From Pyropia haitanensis (taxonomy: Eukaryota > Rhodophyta > Bangiophyceae > Bangiales > Bangiaceae), in the NCBI GenBank assembly GCA_008729055.1, contig SDUX01000009.1:814806-878805 (forward strand): 64,000 nucleotides of DNA, written 5' to 3'. The position numbers and the translations under genes are program-made. Shown piece by piece: positions 51,705-62,701 of this stretch. Within the stretch, counting starts at the first letter, position 1; each line of letters starts with the position of its first letter. The notes beneath the pieces are model-generated. The model made no database searches and was not told the origin of the DNA. It was given only the letters and a program-made list of their open reading frames with translations.

Positions 51705-52347
51705 TGTGGCATATATACGCCTGGGGGGCGCGCAGGGGCCGTCCACGGCTAAGTGGACGGCACGCGCCGCAGCCCCACGGGCGGCCACACCCGCCGAGGG
51801 CGTCGTCGCAACCCCTCTCCCCGACCCCTGTAAAAGGGTCGGGCGGCGCACCGGGCCCGAACGGTCGCGTCACGGGTGGGGCTAGCCCCCCCCCCTAGGT
51901 CGCTTGTGATTGGGTCGAAGGCGTGCGCCGGCGGGCGATCCTTCGACCCGAGGGACAGCTCCCGGGCCGGGGGAGGACGGCCGCGGGAGCTGGATCGAGT
52001 ACTCCCTGTGACGATCGATAGGATCGACCTATCGATTGTGGTACGCCCTTTCGGGGGGTACTCACCAATTTCGCATGCAATTATCGTCTTGGAGGGATTT
52101 CGCTTCTATTTCTTAGGACAGGTCGACCCTGCCCGGTCGACCTGTCCGATCGAGGGTTGCGGCGGGCGCGCGCGCGCCTCTTCTGGGCACGCGACGGCGT
52201 TCTCGCCCCGCTTCTCCCTGCTCGTCAGGTCTAAACGTATCCTTCTTTGTCCCGCTTACTTGCCATAGTCTTGGCACTGCGGTTACGGGTCTGTGCGTCA
52301 ACCCTCCCCCCTGATTACGGTACCCTGTGGACACCCGACTTGCCACA
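51705..52347 (+). repeat. 5' LTR of the 11-kb element
   Basis: 643 bp. A TATATA box lies at 51712-51717, only 7 bases inside the LTR, which would leave an extremely short U3 if it is the sense promoter. Confidence 0.93.
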
Positions 52348-52349
52348 TT

Positions 52350-52361
52350 TGGTGGAGCAGC
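52350..52361 (+). other. Primer-binding site of the 11-kb element
   Basis: TGGTGGAGCAGC two bases after the LTR. One base different from the copia site at 21081-21070, so both may use the same or a related tRNA. Confidence 0.55.
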
Positions 52362-52613
52362 AGGGGATACGCAGAAACTCACGGCCCTCGGCCGTGAGGT
52401 GGACGTGTATCTCCTTATCTTTTACGGCTAAGACGGGTAGCGGTGTCATCGTGGACTTCGACTTGGGCGGCCGGAGCGCAGGGCGCAAACGGACCCGGGT
52501 CAAGGTGGTGGTGAGCGGGGCTCATCACGTCAAGGGGTCGCCACGGGCCGTAGCCCCGTGGACGACAGCGATCGCCGGTCCTCGACAGGGGAGGACCTGA
52601 TCGGTCGGGCAAC
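52362..52613 (+). other. Leader of the 11-kb element
   Basis: About 250 bases between primer site and gag. Contains the near-palindrome CACGGCCCTCGGCCGTGAG (52380-52398). No ORF. Confidence 0.5.
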
Positions 52614-61990: not shown

Positions 61991-62050
61991 CGTCCGTCAA
62001 CACGACGGACGAAGCAACTTGGTCGCCGAGGGACGGCGACAAGCTAACAC

Positions 62051-62058
62051 GGGGGGTA
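62051..62058 (+). other. Weak polypurine tract before the 3' LTR
   Basis: GGGGGGTA directly before the LTR start; short but in the expected place. Confidence 0.45.
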
Positions 62059-62701
62059 TGTGGCATATATACGCCTGGGGGGCGCGCAGGGGCCGTCCAC
62101 GGCTAAGTGGACGGCACGCGCCGCAGCCCCACGGGCGGCCACACCCGCCGAGGGCGTCGTCGCAACCCCTCTCCCCGACCCCTGTAAAAGGGTCGGGCGG
62201 CGCACCGGGCCCGAACGGTCGCGTCACGGGTGGGGCTAGCCCCCCCCCCTAGGTCGCTTGTGATTGGGTCGAAGGCGTGCGCCGGCGGGCGATCCTTCGA
62301 CCCGAGGGACAGCTCCCGGGCCGGGGGAGGACGGCCGCGGGAGCTGGATCGAGTACTCCCTGTGACGATCGATAGGATCGACCTATCGATTGTGGTACGC
62401 CCTTTCGGGGGGTACTCACCAATTTCGCATGCAATTATCGTCTTGGAGGGATTTCGCTTCTATTTCTTAGGACAGGTCGACCCTGCCCGGTCGACCTGTC
62501 CGATCGAGGGTTGCGGCGGGCGCGCGCGCGCCTCTTCTGGGCACGCGACGGCGTTCTCGCCCCGCTTCTCCCTGCTCGTCAGGTCTAAACGTATCCTTCT
62601 TTGTCCCGCTTACTTGCCATAGTCTTGGCACTGCGGTTACGGGTCTGTGCGTCAACCCTCCCCCCTGATTACGGTACCCTGTGGACACCCGACTTGCCAC
62701 A
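62059..62701 (+). repeat. 3' LTR of the 11-kb element
   Basis: 643 bp, same length as the 5' LTR and identical in its internal frames. Followed by CTCGC. Confidence 0.93.
62064..62072 (-). promoter_or_regulatory. Candidate antisense promoter (TATATATG) in the 3' LTR
   Basis: The GCATATATACGC block at the LTR edge reads GTATATATGC on the minus strand. From there the antisense ATG at 61990 is about 75 bases away, a normal TATA-to-start distance. The same block read on the plus strand is the only obvious sense TATA box. Inference only. Confidence 0.4.

What the first reader, a model, noticed from the sequence alone, without database searches (positions are those of the whole stretch)
51705..62701. 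LTR retrotransposon with an enlarged gene set: gag, pol, chromo/Dam-like ORF and an antisense gene
Boundaries are certain from the sequence (643-bp LTRs, CTCGC duplications). Inside, two extra genes follow a canonical gypsy pol: an overlapping ORF that separates the chromodomain from the integrase and joins it to a Dam-like fold, and a 986-codon gene on the opposite strand. Antisense ORFs are known from plant Tat/Ogre lineages and Dam-like domains from DIRS elements, but I know of no element with both. The LTRs and all ORFs look intact, so the combination is probably active and maintained by selection.
Basis: partly seen in the sequence, partly recalled or inferred. Interest (0 to 1): 0.92.

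Follow-up and report, generated by a model that had tools for sequence, protein, structure and literature searches.

The report
Algal retrotransposon with conserved antisense gene
An LTR retrotransposon in what is likely a red-algal genome carries, beside gag and pol, a protein gene on the opposite strand that shows purifying selection and has relatives in the same convergent place in other element families; it likely encodes a helper protein that would act in the nucleus, while the Dam-like part is the tail of Pol.

Summary
The element is real: identical 643-bp LTRs, CTCGC duplications, gag, Ty3-type pol. (1) There is no separate chromo/Dam gene: in 28 of 29 other fetched copies Pol runs in frame through the integrase-chromodomain junction; the window copy is interrupted there. 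(2) The 986-codon antisense gene is genuine: 0 of 1000 shuffles give so long a frame, and its N-domain shows purifying selection (nonsynonymous/synonymous ratio 0.18 and 0.30). Relatives occur at 25-30% identity in other Ty3 families of the genome and at 53-57% in Pyropia yezoensis. Of 40 antisense-gene hits with a pol hit within 6 kb, 39 are convergent and downstream. At least one of these families (L063) lacks Dam. The gene is not needed in cis: 6 of 30 fetched Dam loci keep Pol-Dam but have lost both antisense domains, and one of them has substitution-free LTRs. No significant Pfam, NCBIfam or PDB match, so it is not the plant TRP28 protein. Most likely a trans-acting nuclear accessory protein (inferred).

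The parts
51700..51704 (.). target-site duplication CTCGC (5' side)
   Evidence: sequence
51705..52347 (+). 5' LTR, TGTGGC...GCCACA, 643 bp
   Evidence: identical to the 3' LTR
52350..52368 (+). putative primer-binding site TGGTGGAGCAGCAGGGGAT; matching tRNA not found
   Evidence: sequence; pattern search (37 hits); no tRNA in the 9 hit regions tested
52614..54425 (+). gag, 603 codons, CCHC zinc knuckle
54284..58024 (+). pol: RT, RNase H, integrase; in this copy the frame ends early at the integrase-chromodomain junction
57976..58923 (+). chromodomain, a second stretch, and Dam-like domain; C-terminal part of Pol in 28 of 29 other fetched copies, not a separate gene
59030..61990 (-). antisense gene (aORF), 986 codons, convergent with pol
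60731..61990 (-). aORF N-domain (aa 1-420), the most constrained part
59351..60730 (-). aORF low-complexity linker; aa 661-880 is Arg/Ser-rich, charge about +35, 22 RS/SR dipeptides
59033..59350 (-). aORF C-terminal domain, aligned with P0001 and P0002 of P. yezoensis
62051..62058 (+). polypurine-tract-like GGGGGGTA next to the 3' LTR (by eye)
   Evidence: sequence
62059..62701 (+). 3' LTR
62066..62071 (.). TATATA; it occurs only twice in the element (once in each LTR), here 81 nt upstream of the aORF ATG: candidate antisense promoter
62702..62706 (.). target-site duplication CTCGC (3' side)

Best explanation
This is a Ty3-type LTR retrotransposon with a chromodomain, one copy of a recently amplified family, whose Pol in the other copies ends in a chromodomain plus a Dam-like tail in a single frame and which carries a convergent antisense gene under purifying selection that likely encodes a nuclear, nucleic-acid-binding accessory protein, probably supplied in trans. 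Shown: the anatomy, the recent spread, the coding selection, relatives of the gene in other Ty3 families in the same convergent position, and its absence from some copies, one of them recently inserted. Inferred: the gene would be transcribed towards pol from the edge of the 3' LTR (the only TATATA outside the 5' LTR lies 81 nt upstream of its ATG); its protein (an N-domain of about 400 residues, a strongly basic RS-rich linker, a short C-domain) would bind element RNA or DNA in the nucleus and help a step of the life cycle; copies without the gene would be served by protein from copies with it. The Dam-like tail most likely serves as a binding or targeting module, not as a methyltransferase, since the aromatic residue of the (D/N)PP(Y/F/W) motif is missing (motif rule recalled).
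For: LTRs and target duplication. Ty3 type: best PDB match Ty3 Gag-Pol 7q5b, E 2.7e-112. Single-frame Pol through the junction in 28 of 29 other fetched copies. aORF selection: N-domain, 13 young copies besides the window's own, 28 synonymous vs 15 nonsynonymous distinct variants (ratio 0.18, binomial P 5e-8); 6 older copies, 80 vs 71 (0.30, P 6e-13); the other two frames of the same strand give 1.13 and 2.05 (P values treat variants as independent). Deeper: L070 dS 0.55, dN/dS 0.19; L061 vs L088 dS 0.39, dN/dS 0.25; L063 vs L087 dS 1.3, 0.32. Position: 39 of 40 aORF hits that have a pol hit within 6 kb are convergent and downstream; 10 more hits have no pol hit that near. Relatives in Pyropia yezoensis. 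Not needed in cis: 6 of 30 fetched Dam loci lack N- and C-domain, the LTR following the remnant; one of them has LTRs without substitutions (L028/L029). No transmembrane-like stretch (maximum Kyte-Doolittle 19-mer 1.39).
Against: No expression data; nuclear location and nucleic-acid binding rest on composition only. The AlphaFold model of the N-domain is unusable (mean pLDDT 38.5). The C-domain shows no significant constraint among older copies (4 vs 11 variants, ratio 0.95). At the four other loci tested (L061, L063, L081, L082) no TATA-like motif lies within 400 bp upstream of the aORF starts tried. The link between the two aORF groups (window/L061/L062 and L063/L081/L082) is weak: 35% over 65 aa, E 1e-6 for that single pair, hhalign probability 49%, E 1.7e-4. 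Copies without the gene exist and spread, which fits a restraining role as well as a helping one.
Confidence: 0.6

Rival explanations
1. The antisense gene is an envelope-like gene, a remnant of a retrovirus-like past.
For: It lies between pol and the 3' LTR, where env lies in retroviruses and env-like ORFs in some plant elements (PMC7264820, passages seen).
Against: It is on the opposite strand; no transmembrane-like segment and an Arg/Ser-rich basic linker; no significant Pfam match.
Confidence: 0.04
2. What matters is the antisense RNA: convergent transcription makes double-stranded RNA that tunes element copy number, and the long frame is a by-product of GC-rich sequence.
For: Convergent arrangement with pol in 39 of 40 testable cases; such a role is discussed for plant aORFs (PMC7264820, passages).
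Against: Selection acts on codons: ratio 0.18-0.30 in the aORF frame and variants by codon position 52, 32, 94; 0 of 1000 shuffles reach 986 codons; protein relatives in P. yezoensis. It may act in addition to the protein.
Confidence: 0.1
3. The antisense gene encodes a repressor that limits further copies, a copy-number control protein made by the element.
For: Copies that lost the gene also spread; 20 of 24 close copies of the L063-type pol have no aORF hit within 4 kb, as if loss were an advantage.
Against: Purifying selection in many copies and in several families is more easily explained by a benefit to the element; nothing here measures the direction of the effect.
Confidence: 0.2
4. The chromo/Dam ORF of the window is a true separate overlapping gene reached by frameshifting.
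For: It opens with ATG inside the overlap in the window copy.
Against: 28 of 29 other fetched copies read through the junction in the pol frame, and so do the relatives L061 and P0006.
Confidence: 0.02

Closest known systems
Retand plant Ty3 elements with antisense ORFs encoding TRP28 (PF04195); PMC11963269, passages seen
   Same: Antisense gene between pol and 3' LTR, convergent with gag-pol, present in nearly all recently active clusters studied there; suggested DNA binding and regulatory role.
   Different: Retand is described there as non-chromovirus; here Pol has a chromodomain. The proteins here match neither PF04195 nor any other Pfam family significantly; relatives of the window protein were found only in Pyropia yezoensis, a EukProt entry and a JGI metagenome.
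Chromoviruses (chromodomain Ty3 elements)
   Same: Ty3-type RT, RNase H and integrase followed by a chromodomain.
   Different: Dam-like tail after the chromodomain and an antisense gene. No reference RT tree was built.
DIRS-type elements with Dam-like domain
   Same: Dam-like domain, 32% identical to that of a tandem DIRS-like element in the same genome (L064; Dam PF05869 E 9.8e-13).
   Different: The window element has direct LTRs and an integrase core domain; its motif reads NPPT, not YPPF as in L064.
Ty3/Gypsy elements with captured DNA methyltransferase domains (PMC5890265, start of abstract in a listing; PMC6338049, passages)
   Same: Methyltransferase-like domain in a Ty3 Pol; the second paper names Rhodophyta among the groups with DAM- and DCM-encoding Ty3/Gypsy and DIRS elements.
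   Different: Those in PMC5890265 are cytosine methyltransferases; here the domain is of adenine type and probably inactive.

Membership tests
Ty3/Gypsy LTR retrotransposon | LTRs with short target duplication; RT-RNase H-integrase order | tested here: met
Chromovirus | chromodomain at the C-terminus of integrase, same frame | tested here: met
   Met in the family (28 of 29 other fetched copies), not in the window copy. The domain is weak in the window (E 0.005, below cut-off), clear in relative L061 (E 1.2e-7).
Chromovirus | RT falls in the chromovirus clade | not tested
   no reference RT tree was built
Retand with TRP28 aORF | antisense ORF between pol and 3' LTR | tested here: met
Retand with TRP28 aORF | TRP28 (PF04195) domain in the antisense protein | tested here: not met
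   no PF04195 in the window aORF, the 7 members of A2, or L063, L081, L082
Retand with TRP28 aORF | non-chromovirus (no chromodomain) | tested here: not met
   lineage description from PMC11963269
DIRS | tyrosine recombinase in place of integrase, no direct LTRs | tested here: not met
Active N6-adenine methyltransferase (Dam) | (D/N)PP(Y/F/W) motif (recalled) | tested here: not met
   window NPPT, P0004 and P0005 NPPP, L061 APSP; only profile positions 8-70 of 169 match
Env-carrying element | sense ORF with transmembrane segment after pol | tested here: not met

The most novel reading that the evidence does not exclude
Chromodomain Ty3 elements of Bangialean red algae have, independently of land-plant Retand elements, evolved a convergent antisense accessory gene older than the split of at least five of their Pol families, and live as a helper/dependent system: gene-bearing copies feed a gene-less sublineage that has its own LTR variant but shares the same Pol-Dam, the 3' module and LTR being exchanged between copies by recombination.
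Probability: 0.35. Interest if true: 0.8.

Novelty: new variant of a known kind. Interest (0 to 1): 0.58.

Why it matters
[quoted passage not shown] passages). Finding an unrelated protein in the same convergent place in several Ty3 families of a likely red alga suggests that this layout has been favoured more than once, or is very old. The mix of closely related gene-bearing and gene-less copies in one 53-Mb genome gives a natural comparison for what the gene does.

Tried and rejected
Structure route: two AlphaFold jobs (aORF N-domain; chromo/Dam ORF) gave mean pLDDT 38.5 and 40.6, too poor for fold searches, so none was run. Primer tRNA: a 16-base pattern gave 37 hits; tRNA search on 9 of them found none. 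Library searches of the aORF: Pfam, NCBIfam, PDB sequences, about 5.8 billion proteins (in only the roughly 8000 candidates sharing most words were scored): Pyropia yezoensis P0001 and P0002, a EukProt protein P0008, a JGI metagenome protein P0003. Two sub-threshold Pfam rows (E 0.07 and 3, one member each) were disregarded. Rejected: env; separate Dam gene; chance ORF; antisense RNA as the only function. The C-domain match between window and L061 is not significant by itself (E 1.1). No RT tree was built, so 'family' means groups seen in searches.

Confidence in the best explanation was put at 0.60 instead of 0.62 because copies without the gene form a lineage of their own.

Full report
WHAT WAS CHECKED. 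The window is G000:C1:814806-878805, part of a 52.9-Mb assembly in 136 contigs. The best relatives of its antisense protein are Pyropia yezoensis proteins at 53-57% identity, so a Bangialean red alga is likely; the size fits what I recall of Pyropia haitanensis, which no call confirms. The element has two identical 643-bp LTRs (51705-52347, 62059-62701), CTCGC on both sides, gag, and a pol whose nearest solved relative is Ty3 Gag-Pol.

THE FAMILY IS YOUNG. The LTR search scored 40 of 83 candidates, all 40 matching at 97-100%. Ten LTR pairs were compared: 9 have no substitution (3 of these a one-column gap) and 1 has one. Target duplications read from the flanks of these ten: 5 bp in 4, 4 bp in 5, none in 1.

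NO SEPARATE CHROMO/DAM GENE. Searching the genome with the window's chromo/Dam ORF (126 of 141 candidates scored, 104 rows) gave 31 close rows; in 14 of them the open frame is 1664 codons, in the rest it is shorter or interrupted somewhere. Reading the 30 fetched Dam loci as they stand across the integrase-chromodomain junction, 28 of the 29 other copies continue through it: 24 for 341 codons after the marker, 4 to earlier stops at 159, 226, 294 and 329. The window copy stops after 29 and L043 after 16 (a first look at 8 chosen copies was). The outside relative P0006 is also continuous. The window copy is therefore broken at this junction, and copies open there exist. The Dam-like part matches PF05869 over profile positions 8-70 only. 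Its motif reads NPPT in the window, NPPP in P0004 and P0005, APSP in L061 and YPPF in a tandem DIRS-like element of the same genome, L064 (Dam E 9.8e-13). Without an aromatic residue after PP, methyl transfer is unlikely (motif rule recalled). The region is still under constraint (ratio 0.35 young, 0.38 older copies).

THE ANTISENSE GENE IS REAL. It is 986 codons long. In 1000 dinucleotide shuffles of its strand the longest open run had median 286 and maximum 773. The genome search with its first 420 residues (46 of 46 candidates scored) gave 43 rows. Counting each distinct variant once against the window copy, the N-domain shows 28 synonymous and 15 nonsynonymous variants in 13 young copies besides the window's own (ratio 0.18) and 80 and 71 in 6 older copies (0.30; L070 left out of this count; L065 and L071 are near-duplicates). 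The other five frames of the same region give 1.13, 2.05, 1.07, 0.41 and 1.90; the 0.41 frame is the opposite-strand one whose third position falls on the aORF's variable third positions, and it has 8 stops. Linker 0.47 and 0.39. The C-domain gives 0.38 in young copies but 0.95, not significant, in older ones. The most diverged N-domain compared with the window, L070, has dS 0.55 and dN/dS 0.19.

IT HAS RELATIVES IN OTHER FAMILIES. First group: L061 (28% over 384 aa, E 9e-20) and L062 (29%). Second group: L063, L082 (25% to L063, E 1.5e-12) and the L081 type (about 30% to L063 over some 165 aa, E 2e-9). The groups are linked only weakly (35% over 65 aa, E 1e-6; hhalign probability 49%, E 1.7e-4; window-family rows from about 2.6e-4). 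Against the pol hits, 50 aORF hits were placed: 25 of the 43 rows, 4 of the 32, 21 of the 43; I dropped the rest beforehand because they were fragments of a listed locus or repeated another list. A few fragment rows were dropped too. Result: 39 convergent and downstream, 1 otherwise (C7:3737716; a family pol, C7:3727382, lies some 10 kb upstream in the expected orientation), 10 without a pol hit within 6 kb. Selection in relatives: L061 vs L088 0.25 (one stop codon skipped), L063 vs L087 0.32. The Pol of L063 ends at the chromodomain and has no Dam part, so Dam and aORF are separate features.

COPIES WITHOUT THE GENE. In 6 of 30 fetched Dam loci (L033, L040, L042, L043, L048, L049) Pol-Dam is about 99% identical to the window, but between Dam and the 3' LTR only a linker remnant at about 81-82% and the stretch next to the LTR remain. 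The remnant still carries the mark of coding selection (dS 0.39, dN/dS 0.37, one stop). In 5 of the 6 the following LTR is a longer variant, about 96-97% identical over the shared 641 bp and with an extra 5' stretch of some 90 bp at 82-83%; these five are 98-99% alike. The sixth, L040, has the common LTR, and its pair (L028/L029) shows no substitution. The LTR pairs of the other five were not compared. By hit counts, 21 of 31 window-family Dam loci, 4 of 24 close copies of the L063-type pol (one of the 4 an L061-type gene) and 6 of 17 of the 1435-codon type have an aORF hit within 4 kb; two such loci without a hit that I inspected, L083 and L084, show no comparable ORF. In five older copies the linker has synonymous divergence of 0.09-0.11 against 0.02-0.04 in pol. 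Recombination between copies, with exchange of the 3' module and LTR, would explain these observations (inference).

HOW IT LIKELY WORKS. The protein has an N-domain, an Arg/Ser-rich linker (aa 661-880: 24% Arg, 22 RS/SR, charge +35) and a short C-domain; no membrane-like segment. The only TATATA outside the 5' LTR lies at 62066-62071, 81 nt upstream of the aORF ATG on the minus strand; four other loci tested show no TATA-like motif within 400 bp of the starts tried. I conclude, as inference, that the gene is read from the edge of the 3' LTR and gives a nuclear nucleic-acid-binding accessory protein, shared in trans. Whether it promotes or restrains the element is open; restraint is kept as a rival.

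COMPARISON WITH WHAT IS KNOWN. [quoted passage not shown] passages seen), mostly with TRP28 in Retand, a non-chromovirus lineage; here PF04195 is not found. DAM- and DCM-encoding Ty3/Gypsy and DIRS elements are mentioned for Rhodophyta among others (PMC6338049, passages). The listings (the best 1-15 papers of each search) showed no title or abstract start about a chromodomain element with an antisense gene in algae; that library lacks most subscription journals.

Noticed in passing
49756-51006 (+) and 62801-64000 (-): A NAM-associated ORF (PF14303) and a DDE transposase ORF (PF04827, PF13359; PIF/Harbinger-type by recall) flank the LTR element, which may therefore have inserted into a Harbinger-like DNA transposon.
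   Followed up: partly
4684-20252: Two near-identical Ty3 elements in direct order (pol 7686-11177 and 15797-19288), with 300-nt repeat copies that are 100% identical at 4684, 11189, 12792 and 19300.
   Followed up: partly
3836-4645 (-): Copia-like RNase H fragment (by eye) at the edge of these elements.
   Followed up: no
L064 (G000:C1:909200-914400); hits at C1:909508-919306 and C93:7587-23323: DIRS-like elements (RT, Dam-like domain; another ORF that resembles a tyrosine recombinase by eye, without a significant Pfam match) with Dam hits spaced about 4.7 and 5.1 kb in tandem.
   Followed up: partly
57976-58923, residues 114-160: A second beta-rich stretch after the chromodomain could be a further SH3/chromo-like fold; the model is low confidence.
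   Followed up: no
L088 (G000:C7:3754173-3755252): An L061-type antisense gene lies 2.2 kb from a pol of the L063 type, possibly a recombinant or a nested insertion.
   Followed up: no
L091-L095: Five gene-less copies carry a longer LTR variant with a partial repeat of the LTR start.
   Followed up: partly
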